Source: a virus | Direction: 5' to 3' (one strand) | IMG/VR virus record: IMGVR_UViG_3300025417_000595 | Coordinates: 1-25,492 of that record | DNA: 25,492 nt | Part shown: positions 2 to 23,759 of the stretch, one piece after another | How the letters are laid out: each line of letters begins with the position of its first letter | Numbering within the stretch: the first letter of the stretch is position 1 | Translations under genes and position numbers: made by a program | Notes under the pieces: model-generated | What the model was told of the DNA's origin: nothing | Seen by the model: only the letters and a program-made list of their open reading frames with translations | Database searches by the model: none

Positions 2-463
2 AAGTTTGATTGGAACTGGCAACCAGATAGAATGCAAATTCCAAAGCATTATATTTTCCAAGCAAAGAATCCTGTGAATGGTCTAGTTTATGGTCACCAA
101 GCCATGATTGCATATAACAAGAAACTTACACTTGCTAACGAGGGTAAAGGTCTTGACTTTACATTAGACGACCCGCATGAAGTTGTGCAATTGTTGTCTG
201 GTACAGCAGTATATAACACAGATGCATTTAGCACATGGCGTACTGCGTTCCGTGAAGTATTAAAACTACGTGCAGAAGATAGTGATATCGCACGTGAACG
301 TTTACATGCTTGGTTGAACAAAGCAGAAGGTGACTTTGCACAATATAGTATCAAGGGTGCAGTTGATGCAGATGAATACTATGATGAAGTAAACGGAGAC
401 TTTGACAAGATCAAACTCAGTTATGAGTGGGCATGGTTACGCAACATGTTTGACATGTCATGA
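2..463 (+). CDS. C-terminal part of an unrecognised phage protein (5' end outside window)
   Basis: The reading frame is open from the left edge with no stop, so the first in-frame ATG (position 32) is probably internal and the gene begins outside the window. Before that ATG the frame reads KFDWNWQPDR, an aromatic motif I associate from memory with modular proteins of marine T4-like phages. The visible part has no signal peptide or membrane segment and no catalytic motif I can name. It contains a Trp/Arg-rich stretch (STWRTAFREVLKLR) and an acidic end. Its stop overlaps the start of the radical SAM gene by 4 nt (ATGA), so the two are probably translationally coupled. A glycosyltransferase-related role is possible but not supported by anything decisive here. 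Confidence 0.75.
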   Translation, partial: KFDWNWQPDRMQIPKHYIFQAKNPVNGLVYGHQAMIAYNKKLTLANEGKGLDFTLDDPHEVVQLLSGTAVYNTDAFSTWRTAFREVLKLRAEDSDIARERLHAWLNKAEGDFAQYSIKGAVDADEYYDEVNGDFDKIKLSYEWAWLRNMFDMS

Positions 464-1611
464 TTGAAATCATTCCAGACTTTAAATGTAGCGCGCCATG
501 GGAAGGTGTGTTTATTAATCCTGACGGAGACTTTAGATTTTGTTGTGCAGGACAAAAAGGCTCAATTGGTAATTTAAATAAAAACACACTACAGGAACTT
601 ATTGACGGTCCTGTTAAGCGTGTGCAAGATGACATACTTACAAAAGGTCACAGTGATTATTGTACCAACTGTATGGAGTCTGAACAAAAGTCTGGTAGAA
701 GTTTGCGTGAAAGTTTTACACAAGACTTTACCAAATTTGATACAACAAAATTTGTAGCAAGACAGTTAGATGTTCGTTGGAGAAACACTTGTCATTTACG
801 TTGTGGATATTGTAACAGCGAATGGAGTAGTGCATTCGCACAATGGGAAGGTAAGAACTATAAAGTATCTGAAACATCTTGGCAAGAAGATGTATTAGAA
901 TTCTTGCGTGAGAATAGTGATATGCAAGTTGTTAACTTTTTAGGTGGTGAGCCACTGTTATTAAAAGAAAACGTTGACTTGATTGATTTGATGCCAAGAA
1001 GAATACACGGAGGTGTAGTTACTAATCTTTCAATTGAAAACATTGAAACACTTCCTGTATATCAAAAATTACTTAACCGTAGAACCTCTTGGCTAGTTAG
1101 TTTAGAGGCAACAGGCAATAAATTTGAATACATCAGACGCAATGCCAAATGGGAACTTACTAGCGAAAATTATAAAAATTTACATAAGAACTTAAATCCT
1201 GAAAGTAACTTGGGGATACACATGACATATTGTATCCAAAGTGCGTTCTCATTAGTAGAAACATTTGATTGGTTGTTTAGTGTCGATCCCAACCCAGTTA
1301 ATAATTTTAGTTTCCCGTCTTTACTGTTGGGACCAAAACAGTTTTCTATATACACTTTTCCAAAAGAAATCAAAGAGTTAGCAATACAAGAGTTTGATTT
1401 ATTGATGGAAAAGCACGGTGACTACATTAATCAGCGAACCAAAGACTTTGTAATCAACACACGACAGTCATTGGTAGACACAATGGATGAAATGGATTTA
1501 CAACATTTGGATATATTTAAAGAATATATAAAGAAAACTGATAATGAAATTAACCCAATTACTTTTGCTAAAGAATGGCCCGAAGTCTACGAGATTTTGG
1601 AAAAATATTAA
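460..1611 (+). CDS. Radical SAM protein with N-terminal SPASM/twitch-like cysteine cluster
   Basis: A 383-aa predicted radical S-adenosylmethionine enzyme. The CxxxCxxC motif that binds the catalytic 4Fe-4S cluster is at residues 112-119 (C112, C116, C119), and the SAM-binding GGEP motif is at 164-167. A second cysteine set (C10, C28-C29, C69, C72) lies before the radical SAM core and resembles the SPASM/twitch arrangement that binds an auxiliary cluster. Such enzymes are often peptide- or protein-modifying, but no obvious precursor peptide is encoded beside it, so the substrate is unknown. It starts by a 4-nt overlap with the upstream gene and ends about 30 nt before the likely start of the methyltransferase. 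Family assignment is firm; function is not. Confidence 0.9.
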   Translation: MIEIIPDFKCSAPWEGVFINPDGDFRFCCAGQKGSIGNLNKNTLQELIDGPVKRVQDDILTKGHSDYCTNCMESEQKSGRSLRESFTQDFTKFDTTKFVARQLDVRWRNTCHLRCGYCNSEWSSAFAQWEGKNYKVSETSWQEDVLEFLRENSDMQVVNFLGGEPLLLKENVDLIDLMPRRIHGGVVTNLSIENIETLPVYQKLLNRRTSWLVSLEATGNKFEYIRRNAKWELTSENYKNLHKNLNPESNLGIHMTYCIQSAFSLVETFDWLFSVDPNPVNNFSFPSLLLGPKQFSIYTFPKEIKELAIQEFDLLMEKHGDYINQRTKDFVINTRQSLVDTMDEMDLQHLDIFKEYIKKTDNEINPITFAKEWPEVYEILEKY

Positions 1612-4852: not shown

Positions 4853-5008
4853 ATGAAACAGAGTAAATTAGTATCCAAGATGTACAAGGCATGTTTCACA
4901 CATGATGATGAGAAACAGCAAGAACTACGTAAGTTAGAATTTATTAAGATTTTAAAACGCAAGGCAAAAGGCAAAAAGTTTGATGCCAAGTGGACTGTAA
5001 TGCAATAA
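4853..5008 (+). CDS. Small basic protein, 51 aa, upstream of the tmRNA gene
   Basis: A complete short frame from ATG 4853 to TAA 5006-5008, preceded by AAAGGAAG at good spacing. The product is strongly basic and charged: an N-terminal half with MKQSKLVSKMYKACF and a Lys/Arg-rich C-terminal half (FIKILKRKAKGKKFDAKW). It is predicted helical, without membrane segment or signal peptide. Its stop codon overlaps the AATAAATA box in front of the tmRNA gene, so the two are immediate neighbours. The charge would suit nucleic-acid binding, but nothing shows this directly. It is far too short to be SmpB. Family unknown. Confidence 0.72.
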   Translation: MKQSKLVSKMYKACFTHDDEKQQELRKLEFIKILKRKAKGKKFDAKWTVMQ

Positions 5009-5011
5009 ATA
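5004..5011 (+). promoter_or_regulatory. T4-like late promoter box (AATAAATA) before tmRNA
   Basis: AATAAATA overlaps the stop codon of the 51-aa gene. A T4-type late promoter here would start transcription near 5017, just before the first nucleotides that can pair within the tmRNA (5020). No sigma70 -35/-10 pair was seen at suitable spacing. Confidence 0.5.
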
Positions 5012-5012
5012 A

Positions 5013-5306
5013 GAGATATTGCTGTACGAAGCGAATCCAAAGACGGACAAGACGGGGGTGCGATTCCCCCCGCCTCCACCATATACGCATTATTGATTAG
5101 TGCCTATATGATGGGGGCGACCAGGATCGATTGACGGACAAGTAGACGAGTGGACAGCACGGGAAAGCAGAACCCGTAGGGTTGGGGGAACTCGACCGTA
5201 GAAGCAAAAACTATAATTGCAAACGACAATTATTATTACGAGGATCTACGCTTAGCCGCGTAACCCGTGGGGGCAGGAAAGGCCTTCTAACCCAACAAAC
5301 CAGAAA
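5013..5306 (+). ncRNA. ssrA: Circularly permuted (two-piece) tmRNA
   Basis: Transfer-messenger RNA, which rescues stalled ribosomes and tags the unfinished peptide. The acceptor piece comes first: T stem GGGGG/CCCCC (5054-5058, 5066-5070), loop TGCGATT, then CGCCTCC-A-CCA (5071-5081). The coding piece follows: GGGGGCG (5113-5119) pairs with CGCCTCC to make a 7-bp acceptor stem with G-U at the third pair, the alanine identity mark of tmRNA. The resume codon is GCA 5219, and the tag frame reads ANDNYYYEDLRLAA, stop TAA 5261-5263. Between the pieces, ATATA-c-GCA (5081-5089) pairs with TGC-c-TATAT (5101-5109) as a precursor hairpin. GCTGT (5021-5025) can pair with ACAGC (5154-5158), joining the pieces. 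ACGGG/CCCGT (5159-5163, 5173-5177) forms a hairpin. The exact 5' end and processing sites are inferred. Confidence 0.93.
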
Positions 5307-5330
5307 AGGCTCGCAAGAGCCTTTTCTTTT
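5302..5330 (+). terminator. Rho-independent terminator of the tmRNA gene
   Basis: An 11-bp perfect stem (AGAAAAGGCTC 5302-5312 with GAGCCTTTTCT 5317-5327) closed by a GCAA tetraloop and followed by a T run. It is the strongest terminator in the window and separates the tmRNA from the next gene. Confidence 0.92.
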
Positions 5331-5345
5331 GGATGCTTTAACGTA

Positions 5346-5353
5346 ACTAAATA
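5346..5353 (+). promoter_or_regulatory. Late promoter box ACTAAATA, 5 nt before ATG
   Basis: ACTAAATA followed by exactly 5 nt and ATG 5359. The gene has no visible Shine-Dalgarno. With T4-type spacing transcription would start at the A of ATG, giving a leaderless mRNA. Confidence 0.55.
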
Positions 5354-5358
5354 TTATC

Positions 5359-5838
5359 ATGGCACTTCCAATCGTAACACATATTGAACGCTTACCCAAT
5401 TTAAAAGTTGAATTGAGCAAACTAATTTCCGAGTATCAAACAGTTCAGGATAAACTAGAAGACGTTACTACGCACAATAATTCTACGTTAGTACAGCGAA
5501 AATTTCATTTAATTAAAAATGATATAAGTTCTGATGAATTAAGTTTGTTACCTTATACCAATAGTATTATAGAAGAAGTTTTTAAATTACAAAAATTTAA
5601 CTCAGTAACTTATAGAAGTGTGTTGCCCAATACTTGTTATAACTGGCACACAGATCCAGGAAAATATTGTGTGCATATCCCATTGATAACCAGTACTGGC
5701 GCACGATTTGTATACGAAAACAGGTCATTTTATATGCCAGCAGATGGATCATTGTATGTAGTTCATAATGGAATATCACACACATTTGCTAATGCAGGTA
5801 TCGAACCTAGAGTGCATATAACTTTTGAAAATCTCTAG
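5359..5838 (+). CDS. 2-oxoglutarate/Fe(II) oxygenase-like protein (Asp/Asn beta-hydroxylase type)
   Basis: A 159-aa protein whose C-terminal half fits the double-stranded beta-helix fold of iron/2-oxoglutarate dioxygenases. The metal triad is visible as H97-T-D99 and H141, and R151 is placed to bind 2-oxoglutarate, followed by VHITF. The spacing and the WHTDPG...GISHTFANAG...PRVHITF pattern recall the aspartyl/asparaginyl beta-hydroxylase family. The N-terminal 80 residues are probably substrate-binding or helical. Such small oxygenases are frequent in aquatic T4-like phages; the substrate is unknown. The gene sits behind the tmRNA terminator and has its own late-promoter-like box directly at the start codon instead of a ribosome binding site. 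Confidence 0.8.
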   Translation: MALPIVTHIERLPNLKVELSKLISEYQTVQDKLEDVTTHNNSTLVQRKFHLIKNDISSDELSLLPYTNSIIEEVFKLQKFNSVTYRSVLPNTCYNWHTDPGKYCVHIPLITSTGARFVYENRSFYMPADGSLYVVHNGISHTFANAGIEPRVHITFENL

Positions 5839-5886: not shown

Positions 5887-6309
5887 ATGACTACAAAATA
5901 TTGGGGATACCATTTGCTTTTAGATTGCACAGCGTGTAATAAAGAAAAGATTATGGATGGCGATAACATCATTGCTTTCACTAAAGAATTGATCAAGCGT
6001 ATTGATATGGTTCCAGTTGGGGAACCTCTAGTAAAGCGTTTTGCATTGCATGATGACACTAAAGCAGGATATAGTATGCTTCAATGGATTGAAACATCAC
6101 ATCTTTCTGGTCACTTTATTGATTCTAATGGCGATGCATACTTTGACGTTTTTTCTTGCAAACCATTTAGCAATCAAGTTGTAATTGATACAGTTCGTGA
6201 GTATTTTGCTCCCGAAAACATCAATTCTGCTTATTTGCCAAGAGACACTAGAGTTAAATCAGCAGAAGTTGAGCAATTCCAAGATCCATGGGATATCGCA
6301 CAACGTTAA
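5887..6309 (+). CDS. speD: S-adenosylmethionine decarboxylase-like proenzyme (SpeD-like)
   Basis: A 140-aa protein of the bacterial AdoMet decarboxylase type, which makes decarboxylated AdoMet for spermidine synthesis after self-cleavage to a pyruvoyl enzyme. The GYHLLLDCTAC N-terminal strand, SHLSGH at 71-76 and DVFSC at 87-91 match the family. Key residues keep the spacing known from the Thermotoga enzyme: candidate pyruvoyl Ser71, His76 (+5), Cys91 (+20) and Ser63 (-8). The residue before Ser71 is Thr70, not the usual Glu; a Glu sits one position further back. This ETS..(S/T)GHF form is one I recall from cyanophage homologues. A strong AAGGAGA precedes the ATG. No spermidine synthase is nearby, so it would feed the host pathway. 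Confidence 0.85.
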   Translation: MTTKYWGYHLLLDCTACNKEKIMDGDNIIAFTKELIKRIDMVPVGEPLVKRFALHDDTKAGYSMLQWIETSHLSGHFIDSNGDAYFDVFSCKPFSNQVVIDTVREYFAPENINSAYLPRDTRVKSAEVEQFQDPWDIAQR

Positions 6310-9023: not shown

Positions 9024-10118
9024 ATGCAAGTTTCAGACAATCTTACAGTCACTAGCGTACAGGCACGCAAGGCTATTCTTAAGGCGTTTAAGGTCAAGCG
9101 CCCTGTTTTTCTCTGGGGTCCTCCCGGTATCGGTAAGTCTGAGGTTGTCTCAGAAATTACCGATGAACTGAATGGTCTTATGATTGACTTGCGCATGGCG
9201 CAAATGGAACCTACTGACATTCGTGGTATTCCATACTTCAACAAAGACATCAACAAGATGGACTGGGCTCCCCCAGTTGATCTGCCCGACGAGGAACTGG
9301 CTAGTCAGTATCCCCTCATTGTTCTTTTCCTTGACGAAATGAATAGTGCGCCCCCTGCTGTTCAGGCTGCAGGCTATCAATTGATTTTGAATCGCCGTGT
9401 TGGTAAGTACAAGTTGCCCGATAATGTTGTTATCGTTGCGGCAGGTAATCGTGAAAGTGACAAGGGTGTTACTTATCGCATGCCGATGCCCCTTGCTAAT
9501 CGTTTTGTTCACATTGAAATGCGTCCCGATTTTGCAAGTTGGCAGAACTGGGCTGTTAACAAGAACATCCATCAAGACGTGGTTGGTTACTTGTCTTTCA
9601 GCAAGCAGGACCTGTATGATTTTGATAGCAAGAGTTCCAGCAAGGCATTCGCTACTCCCCGTAGTTGGTGTTTCGTAAGTGACCTGCTTGATGACGAGGA
9701 TACCGATACTGATACTCTGTACAATCTTGTTGCAGGTGCTGTTGGTGAAGGTCTTGCTGTTAAGTTTATGGCTCACCGCAAGGTTGCAGGTCGTATGCCC
9801 GCACCCAGCGATATCTTGAGTGGTAAGGTAACTGACCTTGCAGTTAAGGAAATTTCTGCAATGTACTCTCTTACTGTTTCAATGTGCTATGAACTCAAGG
9901 ATGCAGTTGAAAACAAGAAGGTTGACAAGAAAAAGTTCCATGAAATGGCAAACAACTTTGTCACTTATATGATGAACAACTTTGAAACTGAATTGGTCGT
10001 GATGGGTGCTAAAATCGCCCTCAAGACTTATGGTCTTCCAATTGAACCTAGTCAATTGAAGAACTTTGATGAGTTCCACAAGAAGTATGGCAAGTACATT
10101 GTGGAAGCAGGTAATTAA
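9024..10118 (+). CDS. MoxR-type AAA+ ATPase
   Basis: A 364-aa AAA+ ATPase of the MoxR type. Walker A GPPGIGKS is at 32-39, a MoxR-like EPTDIRGIP loop at 62-70, Walker B VLFLDE at 100-105, sensor-1 N142 (AAGN), and a probable arginine finger R160 (LANRF). The C-terminal 190 residues are a helical lid plus an extension. MoxR ATPases normally work with a von Willebrand A partner to remodel proteins or insert cofactors; here the VWA protein is encoded at 11662, two genes downstream, which supports a functional pair. The target is unknown. The gene has its own sigma70 promoter and an AAGGA ribosome site, and uses many CTT/GGT/AAG codons unlike the late genes. Confidence 0.92.
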   Translation: MQVSDNLTVTSVQARKAILKAFKVKRPVFLWGPPGIGKSEVVSEITDELNGLMIDLRMAQMEPTDIRGIPYFNKDINKMDWAPPVDLPDEELASQYPLIVLFLDEMNSAPPAVQAAGYQLILNRRVGKYKLPDNVVIVAAGNRESDKGVTYRMPMPLANRFVHIEMRPDFASWQNWAVNKNIHQDVVGYLSFSKQDLYDFDSKSSSKAFATPRSWCFVSDLLDDEDTDTDTLYNLVAGAVGEGLAVKFMAHRKVAGRMPAPSDILSGKVTDLAVKEISAMYSLTVSMCYELKDAVENKKVDKKKFHEMANNFVTYMMNNFETELVVMGAKIALKTYGLPIEPSQLKNFDEFHKKYGKYIVEAGN

Positions 10119-11661: not shown

Positions 11662-12954
11662 ATGTCAGAAGTTCTGAACCCAACTAAAAAGCGTAAGCGT
11701 AGCAAGAACCTCGAAAAACTTGTAGGTCCTACTGACCCCAAAATTGATGCGGCCGCACGTGAACGACTGATTACGGCACGTATTGGTTTGCTGTTGCGCC
11801 ATTCGTTTTTTGGTAATCTTGCAACCCGTTTGCAATTGATTAATGCCGACGAATGGTGTTCTACTGCGGCAACTGATGGCTTGAAGTTTTATTACAATGC
11901 ACGTTTCATTATGATGCTAAAGCCTAAGGAAGTTGAATTCCTTGTAGGTCATGAAGTGTTGCACGTTGTATATGATCACATTGGTCGCCGAGGTAATCGT
12001 GACCCTCAAATCTGGAACATCGCCGATGACTATGCTGTTAACGCTGACCTCAAGCGTCACAAGGTAGGCGACTTTATCACTACTGTGCCTTGCTTGTATG
12101 AAACAAAGTATGATGGCAAGCCTGCTGAGGAAATCTATGATGACCTCATGCAAAACGTGCAACACATTGATATCGATTCATTGGTCGATAAAATGATTGA
12201 CGATCACCTCGAGGCTGATGGCGAAGGTGGTGATGAAGGCGAAGACGGTGATGGCGACAAGCAAGGCAAAGGTCGTCCTAAGATGAGTCCTGAGGAACGT
12301 GAACGTGTTCGTCAGGAAGTCAAGCAGGCTATCATCAATGCCGCACAAGGTGCCGAACCCGGAAGTGTCCCTAAGGGTGTTGAACGTCTTATCAAGCAAC
12401 ATACTAACCCTATTATGCCTTGGCGTGAATTGATTCAAACTAATCTGACCAGTGCAATCAAGACTGACTTTAGTTGGATTCGTCCTTCACGTAGAAGTTG
12501 GCACATGGATGCTATCATGCCTGGTATGACTCCTGGTGAGGAAATTGACGTTAACGTGTTCATTGACTTGTCAGGCAGTATTTCAACTGAACAGGGCAAG
12601 GCATTTATTAGTGAAGTTGCAGGCATGATGCAGGCATTTGATGGTTATAAAATCAATATCGCATGTTTCGATACTGAGGTATATAACTACAAAACTTACA
12701 CTAGCGAAACCCTCGAGGATATCGGTGAGTATGAATTGATGGGCGGTGGTGGTACCGACTTTGATTGCATCTTTAAGTATCTTAAGGAAAACGCAATTGA
12801 ACCAAATCGACTGATTGTCTTTACTGATGGTTATCCGTTTGGTTCGTGGGGTGACCCGGACTATTGTGATACGACATGGATTATTCATGGTGATCCCAAT
12901 CCAAATCCCCCGTTTGGAACTTACGCAATTTACGATGATCATAAAAAGCGTTGA
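11662..12954 (+). CDS. VWA-domain, metallopeptidase-like protein (DUF2201 type), partner of MoxR-type ATPase
   Basis: A 430-aa protein in three parts. The N-terminal domain has HEVLH at 97-101 followed by VVYDH106, a zinc-peptidase-like HExxH...H site, in the setting LVGHEVLHVVYDHIGRRG typical of DUF2201-type proteins. An acidic Gly/Asp/Glu linker spans about 184-206. The C-terminal domain is von Willebrand A with a metal-ion site DLSGSIS at 302-308, a GGGGTDFD threonine segment, and FTDG. This is the usual partner of MoxR AAA+ proteins, and the ATPase is encoded at 9024 in the same block. Whether the HExxH site cuts substrates is unknown. It has a promoter of its own and an AAAGGA ribosome site. 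Family assignment is firm. Confidence 0.9.
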   Translation: MSEVLNPTKKRKRSKNLEKLVGPTDPKIDAAARERLITARIGLLLRHSFFGNLATRLQLINADEWCSTAATDGLKFYYNARFIMMLKPKEVEFLVGHEVLHVVYDHIGRRGNRDPQIWNIADDYAVNADLKRHKVGDFITTVPCLYETKYDGKPAEEIYDDLMQNVQHIDIDSLVDKMIDDHLEADGEGGDEGEDGDGDKQGKGRPKMSPEERERVRQEVKQAIINAAQGAEPGSVPKGVERLIKQHTNPIMPWRELIQTNLTSAIKTDFSWIRPSRRSWHMDAIMPGMTPGEEIDVNVFIDLSGSISTEQGKAFISEVAGMMQAFDGYKINIACFDTEVYNYKTYTSETLEDIGEYELMGGGGTDFDCIFKYLKENAIEPNRLIVFTDGYPFGSWGDPDYCDTTWIIHGDPNPNPPFGTYAIYDDHKKR

Positions 12955-15364: not shown

Positions 15365-16276
15365 ATGAAACAGTACCTAGATTTATTACAAGATATTTTA
15401 GACAACGGCGAAACAAAAGACGACCGTACTGGAGTAGGCACAATTAGCCTATTTGCCAGACAATTGCGTTTTGATTTGCGTGAAGGCTTTCCAGCAGTAA
15501 CAACTAAAAAATTAGCATGGAATGCTTGTAAAGCAGAGTTGCTTTGGTTCATTGAAGGATCAAGTGATGAACGTAGATTAGCAGAATTAACATACAAAGA
15601 CCCAACAGGAAAAGTTACTATTTGGACTCCAAATGCTTTAGCAAGTTATTGGAAACCCAAAGCAAAGTATGATGGTGATTTGGGTCGAGTATATGGAGTA
15701 CAATGGAGACATTGGAGAAAACCTGTACTAAATCACGAACATGAAATGTTCCGTGATGACTTTGGTAGTTGGTACAGTGGTCCAGGACCAAGTCATATTG
15801 AAGTAGATCAATTGGAAAATTTGATTGAAGGATTAAAGAATGACCCTAATGGTCGCAGACATATTATCAGTGCATGGAATCCAGGTGAACTAGATCAAAT
15901 GGCATTGCCACCTTGTCACGTTATGTGCCAGTTCTATGTTAATAAAAACCGTGAACTTAGTTGCCATATGTATCAACGCAGTGTTGATGTGTTTTTAGGC
16001 TTACCTTTCAACATTGCTAGTTATGCATTGTTTACACATTTGATTGCACAAGTATGTGGTTATGGTGTTGGTGAGTTGATTATCAGTACAGGTGACACAC
16101 ATATCTATAAGAACCATGTTGAACAAGTAAAAGAACAATTACAACGTAAACCTTTACCACTCCCTACTTTGAAGTTAAATAAAAGTATCAAGGATATCAA
16201 TGATTTTAAAATGAGTGATATTGAATTGTGTGATTACGAAAGTCATGGCTCAATCAAAGCCGAGATGGCAGTATGA
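15365..16276 (+). CDS. thyA: Thymidylate synthase (ThyA type)
   Basis: A 303-aa folate-dependent thymidylate synthase that converts dUMP to dTMP with methylene-tetrahydrofolate. Phosphate-binding Arg21 (DDRTGVGT), WFIEG, the RVYGVQWRHWR segment, catalytic Cys184 in ALPPCHVM, RSVDVFLGLPFN and GDTHIYKNH are all present. The length is slightly above the 264 aa of the E. coli enzyme because of an insertion near residues 120-160. Many lytic phages carry it to raise dTTP supply. It has its own promoter and a GAAAGA upstream of the ATG, and its stop overlaps the next start by 4 nt. Confidence 0.97.
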   Translation: MKQYLDLLQDILDNGETKDDRTGVGTISLFARQLRFDLREGFPAVTTKKLAWNACKAELLWFIEGSSDERRLAELTYKDPTGKVTIWTPNALASYWKPKAKYDGDLGRVYGVQWRHWRKPVLNHEHEMFRDDFGSWYSGPGPSHIEVDQLENLIEGLKNDPNGRRHIISAWNPGELDQMALPPCHVMCQFYVNKNRELSCHMYQRSVDVFLGLPFNIASYALFTHLIAQVCGYGVGELIISTGDTHIYKNHVEQVKEQLQRKPLPLPTLKLNKSIKDINDFKMSDIELCDYESHGSIKAEMAV

Positions 16277-16494: not shown

Positions 16495-16736
16495 ATATTA
16501 TAAAAACTAAAGTTCATACGATTAGAATGGCAGATGTTGAAGATCCCGATCTGTTTGTTGCTGAACCGATATATCATTGGCAACAAACTGACGCAGGAAA
16601 GTTTATTATGAATAATAGTAAACAACAGCCAGAATGGCATAGACGTATCGACACTTACAAGTATGGATATCAATATGATATCATAGCATATTTGGAAGAG
16701 AAAGACTTAACATTTTATAGATTGAAATACGAATGA
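16491..16736 (+). CDS. Small phage protein, 81 aa
   Basis: Starts at ATG 16491 by a 4-nt ATGA overlap; the frame is open upstream but only inside the previous gene. The product (MNIIKTKVHTIRMADVEDPD, then PIYHWQQTDAGKFIM, then YKYGYQYDIIAYLEEKD) looks like a small beta-rich domain. The pattern IxxxDVEDPDLxVAxP recalls phage proteins related to small virion or nucleotide-binding factors, but I cannot assign it. It overlaps the epimerase start by 4 nt. Confidence 0.78.
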   Translation: MNIIKTKVHTIRMADVEDPDLFVAEPIYHWQQTDAGKFIMNNSKQQPEWHRRIDTYKYGYQYDIIAYLEEKDLTFYRLKYE

Positions 16737-17704
16737 GAATATTAGTAACTGGAGGCCTAGGATTAATAGGTCATAACATTGTAGCAAGGCTTGAGGCTTT
16801 AGGACATGAAGTCTCTATCACAGATATCCGTACTAACTATGGAATAATCCCGCAGGAAGAACTTGGGTATCTTATAGGAGAACGCACAGAAAAAATCAAA
16901 AATTCTCCATGTTATAAGATTGATATCAGTGACCAAGAAGGCATGGATTGGTTATTCAAAAATCATAAACCTGAAATAGTTATCCATACAGCAAGTTTCC
17001 CCCGTCAAAAAGTTGTCAACGCCAATCCCATGATTGGTGCAAAAACAATGATGGAAGGATTAATGAATCTATGCGAATTGAGTAAAAAATATTCAGTACG
17101 TAGATTTATGTATATTAGTAGTAGTATGGTCTATGGTGACTTTACTGATGATGTTACAGAAGATGCCATCTGTAAACCACAAGGGCAATATGGCATTATG
17201 AAATTAGCAGGAGAACAGATTGTCAAAGATTACGCAAGGCGAGGTTGTTTTGATTATACTATTGTGCGTCCTAGTGCTGTATACGGGCCGCTTGATGTCG
17301 AGGATAGAGTTATTGCAAAATTTATGCTTACAGCAATTAGAGGAGGAACCCTCAAAGTCAACGGCGCCGGAGAAACCCTCGATTTCACCTATGTTGACGA
17401 TGCAGCTGACGGAATCGTTGCAGCCTCACTCAGCGACAACACAGCAAACAAAACATACAACATCACCAAAAGCCATAGCAGAACTTTAATTGATGCGGCT
17501 AATCTAGCAATAAGTATTGTTGGTAAAGGTAATATTGAAGTGCGTGACAAAGACGCAGATTTCCCTAGCCGAGGCGCATTAAATATTGATAGAGCAAGGC
17601 AGGATTTTGGATTTGATCCAAAGGTAGATGTAGAAGAAGGTTTTCAGAAATATTATGAATGGCTGAATACTTCTAACTTTTGGAAAGCACAATTGTCAAA
17701 GTGA
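16733..17704 (+). CDS. NAD-dependent epimerase/dehydratase (extended SDR)
   Basis: A 323-aa extended short-chain dehydrogenase. The nucleotide-binding GGLGLIG is at 7-13, a conserved ISSSMVYG strand precedes the catalytic Y153-GIM-K157, and RPSAVYGP follows, as in UDP-sugar epimerases and dehydratases. Together with the aminotransferase 10 nt downstream it would act on a nucleotide sugar, for host or phage glycan. Codon use is odd in the segment 17341-17481: there, C-ending codons (ACC, CTC, GCC, ATC, AAC) dominate, while the flanking parts prefer A/T-ending codons. The start is by a 4-nt overlap with its upstream neighbour. Confidence 0.9.
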   Translation: MRILVTGGLGLIGHNIVARLEALGHEVSITDIRTNYGIIPQEELGYLIGERTEKIKNSPCYKIDISDQEGMDWLFKNHKPEIVIHTASFPRQKVVNANPMIGAKTMMEGLMNLCELSKKYSVRRFMYISSSMVYGDFTDDVTEDAICKPQGQYGIMKLAGEQIVKDYARRGCFDYTIVRPSAVYGPLDVEDRVIAKFMLTAIRGGTLKVNGAGETLDFTYVDDAADGIVAASLSDNTANKTYNITKSHSRTLIDAANLAISIVGKGNIEVRDKDADFPSRGALNIDRARQDFGFDPKVDVEEGFQKYYEWLNTSNFWKAQLSK

Positions 17705-17714
17705 TATCTTATCT

Positions 17715-18773
17715 ATGGGCTTACAAATTCCTCATTTTGGTCTGCAAAGACAGTACAATAATTTAAAGGCGGAATTACTATTTGCAACTGATCAAGTACT
17801 TAGAAGTGGGTGCTTGATTGGTGGCCACTACACTAATAAATTTGAGCAGTGGTTAAAAGATTACACCGGCGCACAATATGCATTAACTGTACATAGTGGA
17901 ACGCAAGCGTTAGAAATGCTTGCTAAGTTTCACTACTTAGATATACATCCTTTAGAATTTGATATTCGACCTAAGATTTATATCCCTAATATATCATACC
18001 CTGCGACACTAAATGCATTTATAAACACAGGCTGGGATATTGAACTATGCGATACTGATAGCAATGGTTTGATAAACATGTCAAATACTGATAGTTCAAG
18101 TTACAAATGTTTTGTAGGACTCTATGGTGCACCGCAAACGTATGACATAACTTCTGGAATGATTGTTGATGGGGCGCAACATTGGATAGTTGCTGATGGA
18201 AACATTGGTGAAGGCATGGCAATCAGTTTTGACCCTACAAAGAACTTAAATGCCAGTGGTAATGGTGGTGCTATCGTTACTAATAATGAAACACTTTATG
18301 AATTTGCAAAACGTCATAGAGACAATGACAAAGGATACAACGAATATCCTGGCACCAATAGTAAAATGAGCGAATTAGATTGCGCACATATCTTAGTAAG
18401 AGCGCAATATTTAAATGACTGGCAAAGACGTAGAGAAGTCACACGTTTATATTATTTGGACCAGTTTAAGAATTTACCAATCAAATGTTTAAGTGCAGGG
18501 TTTAGAACTCATGCCGATCAAAAATTTGTAATTTATTCTGAACAAAGAGACCAATTAAAGAATTACTTGACTAGTAAAGGAATCGAAACCAAGATTCATT
18601 ATGAACGTGCATTAAGCGAACTACCAGTCGCTAAACATTATGTTAAACCAACTATGCTAGCAACTAGCGTGTTCTTAACTAGGGGAGTATTAAGTCTCCC
18701 TATCTACCCCGAACTAACAGACGGAGAAATTGAATACATTGTACAAAGTGTTTTAGAATTTTTTGCTAAATAA
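17715..18773 (+). CDS. DegT/DnrJ/EryC1/StrS-type sugar aminotransferase
   Basis: A 352-aa pyridoxal-phosphate enzyme of the sugar aminotransferase family. The SGTQALEM segment, Asp152 (VDGAQ) and Lys176 (SFDPTKNL, the PLP lysine), followed by NGGAIVT, are in place; a late LPIYPEL segment also fits. It would transfer an amino group to a keto-sugar nucleotide made by the epimerase/dehydratase gene just upstream, giving a modified glycan such as a surface or virion decoration. There is no clear ribosome site before ATG 17715. Length is close to the family norm (about 370-400 aa). Confidence 0.9.
   Translation: MGLQIPHFGLQRQYNNLKAELLFATDQVLRSGCLIGGHYTNKFEQWLKDYTGAQYALTVHSGTQALEMLAKFHYLDIHPLEFDIRPKIYIPNISYPATLNAFINTGWDIELCDTDSNGLINMSNTDSSSYKCFVGLYGAPQTYDITSGMIVDGAQHWIVADGNIGEGMAISFDPTKNLNASGNGGAIVTNNETLYEFAKRHRDNDKGYNEYPGTNSKMSELDCAHILVRAQYLNDWQRRREVTRLYYLDQFKNLPIKCLSAGFRTHADQKFVIYSEQRDQLKNYLTSKGIETKIHYERALSELPVAKHYVKPTMLATSVFLTRGVLSLPIYPELTDGEIEYIVQSVLEFFAK
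18765..18772 (+). promoter_or_regulatory. Possible late promoter box (GCTAAATA)
   Basis: TAAATA core at the end of the aminotransferase gene, 8 nt before ATG 18781. Spacing to the ATG differs from the 5-nt layout elsewhere; low confidence. Confidence 0.3.
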
Positions 18774-22211: not shown

Positions 22212-23759
22212 ATGGCAAACGCATTCTCACTAGTAAAGACACCCTATCAGAAAACACTTTTTGCTAATCAAAAGCAATTAGATGATTTTGTGAAATGTTG
22301 TGATCCCAATACAGGGTATCTATACTTCATGGATAACTTCTTTCACATACAACACCCAACTAAGGGTAGTATGTTATATCATCCATGGCCTTATCAACAA
22401 AAACTAATTGATACCTATCACAATTATAGATTTAGTATCAACTTGATGCCTCGACAAAGTGGTAAGTCAACTAGTGCCGCGGGTTATTTGTTGTGGTATG
22501 CAATGTTTATACCAGACAGTACCATTCTTATTGCCGCACACAAGTATACAGGTGCGCAAGAAATTATGCAACGTATACGTTATGCATATGAGAACTGCCC
22601 TGATCATATTAAAGCAGGTGTCACAACATACAACAAAGGATCACTGGACTTTGAGAACGGTAGTCGTATTGTAAGTGCAACAACTACTGAAAATACTGGT
22701 CGTGGTATGTCTATTACACTGTTATATCTTGACGAGTTCGCATTCGTAAGACCTAGTATTGCTAAAGAATTCTGGACTGCTATTACTCCAACACTATCAA
22801 CTGGTGGTAAAGCGATTATCACAAGTACCCCAAACAGTGACGAAGATCAATTCGCATTAATTTGGAAAGGTGCAAACAAAACAGAAGATGAATATGGAAA
22901 TCAAACAGATGTTGGTATAAACGGTTTCAAAGCATATCGTGCGCATTGGAGAGAACAGCCCGGTCGTGATGACAAGTGGGCTGAAGAAATGAAAGCACAG
23001 TTAGGTGAAGATCGTTTCAATCGTGAAATCGGTTGTGAATTCATTATTGCTGATGAAACATTAATTAATCCAAACACATTGATTCAATTAGATGGCATTG
23101 AACCTATTACACGTATGGGACAAGTACGTTGGTATAAACAACCTACTAAAGGTAATATCTATGTAGTAGGACTTGATCCAAGTCTTGGTACAGGTGGAGA
23201 TAATGCGGCTATTCAAATCTATGAAGCAAACACTACAACACAGATAGGTGAGTGGAAGCACAATAAAACAGATATCCCTAATCAAATTAAACTGTTAGCA
23301 CAAATCAACAAGTATATTACAGACATTACCAAAGAACCTAACAATTTATATTACTCAATTGAGAACAACAGTATTGGCGAAGCCGCATTGGTCAGTTTAG
23401 CAGAATACGGCGAGAGCAATATTCCAGGTATCTTTATCAGCGAACCGGGCAAAAAGCGTAAGGGCTTTACAACAACACAAAAACCTAAACTAGCGGCCTG
23501 TGCAAAATTCAAAACACTACTAGAATCTAAAAAGATGACAGTAAACAGCAAGTCATTAATAAGCGAACTAAAAGAATTTGTTGCTAGTGGTGGCAGTTAT
23601 GCAGCCAAAGTTGGTGGAACGGACGATCTAGTTATGTCATCCTTACTAGTAGTTAGAATATTCCAACTATTAAGCGACTATAATAGTGACTTAGAGTCAC
23701 ATATTAGGGATCACCAAGAGATCATTGCACCATTGCCCTTCTTTGCCGTTCTAGGGTAA
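22212..23759 (+). CDS. Large terminase subunit (T4 gp17 type)
   Basis: A 515-aa DNA packaging motor. The N-terminal ATPase has Walker A RQSGKST at 81-87, Walker B LLYLDE around 170-175 (D174-E175) and the coupling motif ITSTPN. The C-terminal RNase H-like nuclease has D322 (GLDPSLGTGGDNAA) and acidic D471-D472 (GTDDLVMSS). It cuts concatemeric DNA and drives it into the prohead. The pattern and length (T4 gp17 is 610 aa) place it in the T4-like superfamily. No ribosome site is visible; an ACTAAATA box lies 5 nt before the start. It is followed 20 nt later by the long structural-type gene, not by T4 tail sheath, so gene order differs from T4. Confidence 0.96.
   Translation: MANAFSLVKTPYQKTLFANQKQLDDFVKCCDPNTGYLYFMDNFFHIQHPTKGSMLYHPWPYQQKLIDTYHNYRFSINLMPRQSGKSTSAAGYLLWYAMFIPDSTILIAAHKYTGAQEIMQRIRYAYENCPDHIKAGVTTYNKGSLDFENGSRIVSATTTENTGRGMSITLLYLDEFAFVRPSIAKEFWTAITPTLSTGGKAIITSTPNSDEDQFALIWKGANKTEDEYGNQTDVGINGFKAYRAHWREQPGRDDKWAEEMKAQLGEDRFNREIGCEFIIADETLINPNTLIQLDGIEPITRMGQVRWYKQPTKGNIYVVGLDPSLGTGGDNAAIQIYEANTTTQIGEWKHNKTDIPNQIKLLAQINKYITDITKEPNNLYYSIENNSIGEAALVSLAEYGESNIPGIFISEPGKKRKGFTTTQKPKLAACAKFKTLLESKKMTVNSKSLISELKEFVASGGSYAAKVGGTDDLVMSSLLVVRIFQLLSDYNSDLESHIRDHQEIIAPLPFFAVLG

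What the first reader, a model, noticed from the sequence alone, without database searches (positions are those of the whole stretch)
5013..5330. Phage-borne circularly permuted tmRNA with a visible precursor hairpin
The acceptor piece (T arm, CCA at 5079-5081) lies upstream of the coding piece (5' acceptor strand at 5113, tag, stop), the order of the permuted, two-piece tmRNAs known from alphaproteobacteria and some cyanobacteria and betaproteobacteria. The 7-bp acceptor stem with G-U third pair, an extra pairing of the spacer (5081-5089 with 5101-5109, 11-nt loop) and an inter-piece helix (5021-5025 with 5154-5158) all agree. Phage tmRNAs are reported, but permuted ones in a T4-like phage are, to my knowledge, uncommon. 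The phage could use it to redirect host rescue and proteolysis late in infection.
Basis: partly seen in the sequence, partly recalled or inferred. Interest (0 to 1): 0.88.

Follow-up and report, generated by a model that had tools for sequence, protein, structure and literature searches.

The report
Phage-carried two-piece tmRNA gene
A large freshwater phage carries its own complete 'split' version of the RNA that bacteria use to free stuck ribosomes; such phage genes are already known, but here relatives hold different bacterial types of it in the same genomic slot, and some phages tuck small protein genes into its discarded spacer.

Summary
ARAGORN and Rfam's permuted-tmRNA model (112.6 bits against a cut-off of 47) call a complete circularly permuted tmRNA. 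The acceptor piece lies upstream of the coding piece; there is a G-U third acceptor pair, an inter-piece helix, an intact 14-aa tag (ANDNYYYEDLRLAA) and a terminator. The precursor hairpin is real and is kept by compensating base changes in relatives. So "uncommon" is wrong. The phage is a T4-terminase relative nearest to giant phages. Most likely the tmRNA supplies ribosome rescue during infection, using host SmpB, AlaRS and ClpXP. Late expression is hinted at only by a late-promoter-like motif.

Beyond the brief: (1) in this phage family the same slot holds alpha-type tmRNA in one well-supported clade and beta-type elsewhere, a tmRNA swap that may mark a host switch; (2) in relatives and unrelated aquatic phages, the excised spacer carries small protein genes with a Shine-Dalgarno-like motif, apparently under purifying selection. 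I found no description of this. The window's own 31-nt spacer has none.

The parts
5004..5011 (+). late-promoter-like element (CATAAATA-type: N-ATAAATA), 16 nt 5' of the tmRNA model start; it overlaps the stop codon of the upstream 51-aa ORF (4853-5008)
   Evidence: Same motif at 12 nt upstream in L204, L206, L211, L239 (TATATAAATAG) and at 16 nt in L237. In the window 6 copies on +, 0 on -, and 5 of 6 lie within 60 nt upstream of a gene start. The total count is not above shuffles (mean 6.8), so this is suggestive only.
5020..5081 (+). acceptor (tRNA-like 3') piece: inter-piece helix strand 5020-5025, T arm 5054-5070, acceptor 3' strand 5071-5077, A5078, CCA 5079-5081; the exact 5' end of the mature piece is not known
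   Evidence: RF04321 positions 1-63; sequence reading; helices with compensatory changes in relatives
5082..5112 (+). 31-nt intervening sequence (spacer), presumably excised; hairpin 5081-5092/5098-5109 stacked on the acceptor stem, then GAU 5110-5112 before the coding piece; no ORF
   Evidence: spacer length 31; GAU boundary kept in most relatives with a long spacer
5113..5300 (+). coding (mRNA-like) piece: acceptor 5' strand 5113-5119, inter-piece helix strand 5154-5159, tag, and the pseudoknot-prone 3' part; 3' end approximate
   Evidence: RF04321 and RF01850 alignments
5219..5263 (+). tag reading frame: resume codon GCA 5219-5221 to UAA 5261-5263, ANDNYYYEDLRLAA
   Evidence: ARAGORN; sequence reading
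5302..5330 (+). intrinsic terminator-like hairpin AGAAAAGGCUC-GCAA-GAGCCUUUUCU followed by UUU
   Evidence: fold; aligned to the terminal hairpin of RF01850; the same sequence type ends L220, L235 and L236

Best explanation
This is a functional, phage-encoded, circularly permuted tmRNA gene. Inferred working: it is transcribed as one precursor from a promoter just upstream (possibly the phage's late type) and stops at the hairpin at 5302-5330. Host RNase P and 3' tRNA-processing enzymes remove the 31-nt hairpin spacer, leaving an acceptor piece of about 60-65 nt and a coding piece of about 190 nt, held together by the acceptor stem and the 6-bp inter-piece helix. Host alanyl-tRNA synthetase recognises the G3.U70 pair, host SmpB and EF-Tu deliver the RNA to ribosomes stalled on broken mRNA, and ANDNYYYEDLRLAA is added so that ClpXP-type proteases degrade the product. 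The benefit to the phage is that ribosomes are kept in circulation while mRNAs are being cut and host ssrA expression falls. Shown here: gene architecture, covarying helices, intact tag, presence in relatives. Inferred: transcription, processing, charging, function and timing.
For: RF04321 112.6 bits and ARAGORN call. Every helix recurs with compensatory changes in related phages: inter-piece helix UGCUGU/ACAGCA in the window against GACUGU/ACAGUC (L234), AUUAGUC/GACUAAU (L208), AUCAGUU/GACUGAU (L206); acceptor GGGGGCG/CGCCUCC against GGGCCUG/CAGGUCC, GGGGAUG/CAUCUCC, GGGGGUG/CACCUCC, all with G-U at position 3; precursor stem AUAUACGCAUUA/UAGUGCCUAUAU against AAAAGCAUACUG/CAGUGUGCUUUU and AUUAACACACUU/GAGUGUGUUAAU. 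13 of 22 records of this phage family have an RF04321 match above cut-off and 14 any match. Of 111 permuted tags in the IMG/VR scan, 95 end in LAA and 110 in [LMIQ]AA, so a protease-recognised end is kept. Phage genes surround it (T4-type terminase at 22212-23759), and an identical copy lies on an independent contig, L203.
Against: No RNA data of any kind. The window scores below the beta cut-off (76.7 against 84) and matches the alpha model only in part (40-275 of 355), so the 3' pseudoknot region is divergent and was not verified. SmpB was not sought in the phage genome (the contig is a fragment). The T loop reads UGCGAUU, lacking U55, which is unusual though shared with CcrRogue, L209, L228 and others.
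Confidence: 0.85

Rival explanations
1. Host take-over tool: the phage expresses this tmRNA late to re-tag proteins and steer proteolysis, rather than mainly to keep ribosomes available.
For: The tag keeps -LAA; a T4-late-promoter-like motif lies 16 nt before the model start, with the same motif at 12-16 nt in five related loci.
Against: Tags of phages in this family resemble bacterial tags of the matching tmRNA type rather than a new signal. The Melnitz authors infer early expression for theirs. No expression data exist here.
Confidence: 0.2
2. Passenger: a tmRNA captured by imprecise excision or recombination that now decays without function.
For: Phages are known to pick up ssrA fragments; score against the alpha and beta models is reduced.
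Against: The gene is complete, with stems kept by compensatory changes, in the same slot in many relatives and with several tags. No integrase was found among the window proteins scanned.
Confidence: 0.07
3. Decoy: an inhibitor of host tmRNA that titrates SmpB, like the tag-less tmRNA of mycobacteriophage DS6A.
For: A precedent exists (PMC4131195; PMC11915505).
Against: Here the tag, resume codon, stop and coding piece are all intact, unlike the DS6A form, which is little more than the tRNA-like domain.
Confidence: 0.03

Closest known systems
Two-piece SsrA of Methylophilales phage Melnitz (MZ577097.1) and Pelagibacter phage Mosig (MT647606.1); PMC9004378
   Same: Permuted tmRNA in T4-related aquatic myophages; precursor stem; intact -ALAA tags (ANDNYVPVDYALAA, GEDNFALAA); RF04321 113.4 and 93.6 bits
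   Different: Different phage group and neighbours; Melnitz has a glutamine riboswitch beside the gene and the window does not. Spacer 142 nt in Melnitz and 44 nt in Mosig against 31 nt here. Melnitz is called alpha-type, the window is intermediate.
Betaproteobacterial tmRNA (Rfam RF01850)
   Same: Best of the lineage models by E-value over the whole gene, including the terminator hairpin (76.7 bits, E 2.1e-23)
   Different: Below the family's cut-off of 84; the start of the tag region (AUAAUUGCAAACGACAA) resembles the alpha consensus instead
Alphaproteobacterial tmRNA (Rfam RF01849)
   Same: 58.7 bits, above the cut-off of 50; alpha-like tag start
   Different: Only model positions 40-275 of 355 match; weaker than the beta model over the whole gene
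tmRNA annotated in Brevundimonas phage Bajun and Sinorhizobium jumbo phage AP-J-162 (PMC11242549)
   Same: tmRNAs in giant phages of alphaproteobacteria; Bajun's scores with RF04321 and RF01849
   Different: Unrelated or only distantly related phages; the form of the AP-J-162 tmRNA was not checked here

Membership tests
permuted (two-piece) tmRNA | Acceptor piece upstream of coding piece, joined by a spacer | tested here: met
   RF04321 full-length, 112.6 bits; ARAGORN tmRNA*
permuted (two-piece) tmRNA | 7-bp acceptor stem with G3.U70 and CCA | tested here: met
   5113-5119 with 5071-5077, G5115.U5075, CCA 5079-5081
permuted (two-piece) tmRNA | Helix joining the two pieces outside the tRNA-like part | tested here: met
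   5020-5025/5154-5159, covarying in relatives
permuted (two-piece) tmRNA | Tag frame with resume codon, stop and a hydrophobic protease-recognised end | tested here: met
   ANDNYYYEDLRLAA*, 5219-5263
permuted (two-piece) tmRNA | Pseudoknots of the coding piece | tested here: inconclusive
   The beta model aligns through the 3' part, but with gaps and non-pairs; pseudoknots were not modelled
permuted (two-piece) tmRNA | Transcript processed into two stable pieces, alanylated, active with SmpB | not testable with these tools
   Needs RNA from infected cells and biochemistry
beta_tmRNA RF01850 | Score at or above the curated cut-off of 84 | tested here: not met
   76.7 bits
alpha_tmRNA RF01849 | Score at or above the curated cut-off of 50 over the whole model | tested here: inconclusive
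   58.7 bits but only positions 40-275 of 355; the beta model ranks higher by E-value
T4-like phage | T4-type large terminase | tested here: met
   phrog_36964, phrog_2
T4-like phage | Close relationship to T4 or its isolated relatives | tested here: not met
   Best isolates are giant phages (PA5oct group, Phosso, GAP32) at 43-50% terminase identity; all 2,567 hits are under 60%

The most novel reading that the evidence does not exclude
The permuted tmRNA locus of aquatic phages is a modular site with two kinds of exchange. First, in the window's phage family the whole gene has been replaced by a tmRNA of another bacterial lineage (alpha in one clade, beta elsewhere) in the same slot, possibly tracking a change of host. 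Second, the spacer that is thrown away during maturation serves as a nest for small protein genes with a Shine-Dalgarno-like motif, under purifying selection; their ribosome-binding site can lie in the precursor stem, and some frames have no stop before the RNase P site, so that processing would turn them into non-stop messages, the substrate of tmRNA itself. The window shows the gene without such an insert.
Probability: 0.6. Interest if true: 0.68.

Novelty: new member of a known kind. Interest (0 to 1): 0.45.

Why it matters
It adds an uncultured freshwater giant-phage family to the phages known to bring their own ribosome-rescue RNA. Because the slot and its neighbours are conserved, the family gives a natural comparison of alpha- and beta-type tmRNAs carried by closely related phages, which makes it testable whether phage tmRNA must match the host's SmpB, AlaRS and proteases. 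The spacer genes found in relatives, if confirmed, are a new kind of gene nesting: a protein gene inside the part of a non-coding RNA gene that is excised and discarded. They are un-annotated even in a cultured phage (Melnitz).

Tried and rejected
1) A bacterial source for the window's tmRNA: an exact-pattern scan of genome contigs for its T arm, acceptor and coding-piece start gave 0 hits; the start of its tag region matched only Ca. Tokpelaia and a 'Rickettsiales' MAG contig, which tells nothing firm about the host. 2) Sequence-only phylogeny of the tmRNAs: not attempted, since the genes are short and mosaic; covariance-model scores and trees of neighbouring proteins were used instead. 3) ORF in the window's own spacer: none (31 nt). 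4) Terminase-based loci with 10-kb flanks showed no tmRNA because the gene lies about 17 kb away; searching the whole records fixed this. 5) My first two scripts for measuring spacer lengths used too strict a T-arm rule and missed nearly all bacteria; one search replaces them. 6) In one search the residues after the end of the spacer are wrong (four G were skipped in joining); only the part inside the spacer is used. 7) In one search the script's helix choice for L228-L235 and a few others (UUGCUG/CGGCAA) is a chance competitor of the true UGCUGU/ACAGC pairing; I use only rows where the pairing is unambiguous. 8) Late-promoter motif: the total count in the window is not above shuffles (6 against 6.8), so only its placement is used.

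Full report
WHAT IS THERE. The window is a 25,492-base IMG/VR virus record. At 5020-5263 on the + strand Rfam's permuted-tmRNA model matches over its full length with 112.6 bits (gathering score 47, E 1.5e-21), and ARAGORN independently calls a permuted tmRNA at 4988-5354 with the tag ANDNYYYEDLRLAA. The acceptor 3' strand, discriminator and CCA occupy 5071-5081; the coding piece begins at 5113; the seven acceptor pairs include G.U at the third position, the main identity element for alanyl-tRNA synthetase (established knowledge). The inter-piece helix is real and is six pairs long (5020-5025 with 5154-5159). The precursor hairpin is real and longer than stated: 5081-5092 pairs with 5098-5109, 11 of 12 pairs with one C.C mismatch. 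The region 5048-5125 folds at z = -4.5 with no shuffle as good, and the whole gene at z = -4.9.

WHICH LINEAGE. The alpha model gives 58.7 bits (cut-off 50) but covers only positions 40-275 of 355. The beta model gives 76.7 bits over its full length, with a better E-value but below its cut-off of 84. The start of the tag region reads like the alpha consensus, the rest more like beta. I therefore do not file it under either; it is a member of the general permuted family.

THE PHAGE. The large terminase is T4-type, but its nearest isolates are giant phages (PA5oct group, Sinorhizobium phage Phosso, GAP32) at 43-50% identity. Related IMG/VR contigs reach 524 kb. Of 22 related records searched whole, 13 have an RF04321 match above the cut-off and 14 any match. 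'T4-like' is thus right for the terminase type only.

NOT UNCOMMON. Buchholz and co-workers reported a two-piece tmRNA in the OM43 phage Melnitz and counted 53 two-piece tmRNAs among 133 unique phage tmRNA structures, 50 of them from marine or aquatic phages (PMC9004378). Pelagibacter phage Mosig is annotated with one too. The element is a new member of a known kind.

ONE SLOT, TWO LINEAGES OF tmRNA. Using the gene just downstream (5359-5838, Asp/Arg hydroxylase-like) I fetched 24 loci, 19 of them clear relatives. The order upstream gene - tmRNA - hydroxylase-like gene - 6350 gene - MoxR-like ATPase - DUF2201 protein is largely kept, with flanking proteins up to 85-87% identical. In this slot L204-L212, L214 and L255 carry alpha-type tmRNA (RF01849 91-100 bits, tag VAANDNNVDLALAA in those that ARAGORN calls), whereas L215-L221 and L247-L254 carry beta-type (RF01850 72-131 bits, some below its cut-off; tags such as ANDETFALAA, ANDSQFALAA); L209 and L210 hold it about 3 kb further upstream. 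L213 has a row of tRNA genes there instead. In trees of the ATPase and of the DUF2201 protein the alpha-type phages form one clade (support 100/97 and 98/97), with the window outside it. The simplest reading is one replacement of the whole tmRNA gene within a phage lineage, plausibly at a change of host between beta- and alphaproteobacteria, as argued for Melnitz on other grounds. Hosts were not determined here.

EXPRESSION. An N-ATAAATA element, like the T4 late promoter TATAAATA, ends nine bases before the model start (5004-5011). The alpha-type relatives L204, L206, L211 and L239 have TATATAAATAG at a similar place, and L237 has CAATAAATA at the same 16-nt distance. In the window the heptamer occurs six times on the coding strand, never on the other, and five of six lie within 60 nt upstream of a gene start, where 8% of positions lie. 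The total number is not above shuffles, and several relatives lack the motif, so late transcription is a hint, not a result.

HOW IT MOST LIKELY WORKS. By analogy with bacterial two-piece tmRNAs: one precursor, removal of the spacer by RNase P and 3' processing, two pieces held by base pairing, charging by host AlaRS, delivery with host SmpB, tagging for ClpXP. The gain is ribosomes kept available during infection. Only the anatomy is shown; the rest is inference from the known family.

THE SPACER IN RELATIVES. The precursor stem is kept by compensatory changes in relatives with a long spacer, usually followed by a constant GAU before the coding piece, but the spacer is 5 to 127 nt long in this family. 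In L228/L273, L229/L258, L230 and L235 it holds a Shine-Dalgarno-like AAGGA within the stem, then an ATG and a short hydrophobic protein. Homologues of the L230 protein stand outside the tmRNA in L204, L206, L211, L215, L229 and L240, and of the L229 protein in L237. Outside the family, the cultured phage Melnitz has an un-annotated ORF (MFKWLSKTRLVVITRDYF...) inside its SsrA gene, and scans for long spacers with a TAAACA/TGTTTATGAT stem found 35 distinct ones, 19 with such an ORF over at least 70% of the spacer, against 24 of 1,750 shuffles. These are true permuted tmRNAs by Rfam. Substitutions are mostly synonymous: pS 0.16-0.44 against pN 0-0.04 in one family, and pS 0.27-0.39 against pN 0.08-0.12 between the two groups of another. 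One ORF resembles DUF2061 just under the Pfam cut-off. In a sample of 38 spacers from bacterial genomes, chosen mainly by tmRNA score with some picked for length, the median is about 30 nt; none of the six longer ones tested showed such an ORF, and the only spacer with one (L276) lies on a contig whose length equals that of an IMG/VR virus record with the same spacer ORF. Searches of the held literature found no description, which is weak evidence because most subscription papers are not held. The ORF scoring was set after the first examples were seen, so the shuffle comparison is a strong hint rather than a planned test.

VERDICT. Observation confirmed; interpretation partly supported; the element itself is ordinary for its kind, while its family context and the spacer genes of relatives deserve follow-up.

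Noticed in passing
L230 1575-1679; L228/L261, L273, L229/L265, L258, L235/L266; L003 (Melnitz MZ577097.1, about 46096-46224); L333, L316, L318, L331, L340, L341, L350, L352, L360: Small protein genes with a Shine-Dalgarno-like motif lie inside the spacer of permuted tmRNA genes; 19 of 35 distinct long spacers against 1.4% of shuffles, with mostly synonymous substitutions. Un-annotated in Melnitz.
   Followed up: partly
L229 1727 onward, L258, L003, L318: In some spacer ORFs no stop codon occurs before the RNase P site, so processing of the tmRNA precursor would leave a non-stop message, itself a tmRNA substrate; a possible self-regulation.
   Followed up: no
L242 1472-1790 (CcrRogue), L243 1472-1765 (CcrColossus), L246 1472-1790 (phiCbK), L244 1479-1734 (Kabachok): Un-annotated permuted tmRNA genes in Caulobacter and Brevundimonas giant phages (RF04321 57-88 bits), between annotated tRNA genes (tRNA-Cys before, tRNA-Met after in most); Bajun (L245) has it annotated.
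   Followed up: partly
L246 477-963: GOLLD RNA (RF02032, 165 bits) in Caulobacter phage phiCbK, with a tRNA-Gly inside it.
   Followed up: no
L213 4138-4778: A row of tRNA genes stands in the place of the tmRNA just upstream of the same neighbour gene.
   Followed up: no
L234, spacer of the tmRNA: The spacer holds tRNA-like fragments, including a second GATGGGCCCGAC acceptor-like start and two T-arm-like stretches.
   Followed up: no
L276 and L346 (PALK01000009.1, 29883 bases): A contig binned as a 'Rickettsiales' MAG has the same length as an IMG/VR virus record that carries the same spacer ORF, so it is probably the same sequence and a phage.
   Followed up: partly
window 460-1611, 5359-5838, 5887-6309, 15365-16276, 16733-17704, 17715-18773: Metabolic and modification genes: radical SAM/SPASM enzyme, Asp/Arg hydroxylase-like protein, S-adenosylmethionine decarboxylase, thymidylate synthase, an epimerase-like protein (by sequence reading) and a DegT-type aminotransferase.
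   Followed up: no
window 9024-10118 and 11662-12954: A MoxR-like AAA ATPase and a DUF2201 (VWA/metallopeptidase-like) protein form a conserved pair, 72-87% identical across the family; PHROGs labels the second 'HNH endonuclease', which the Pfam match does not support.
   Followed up: no
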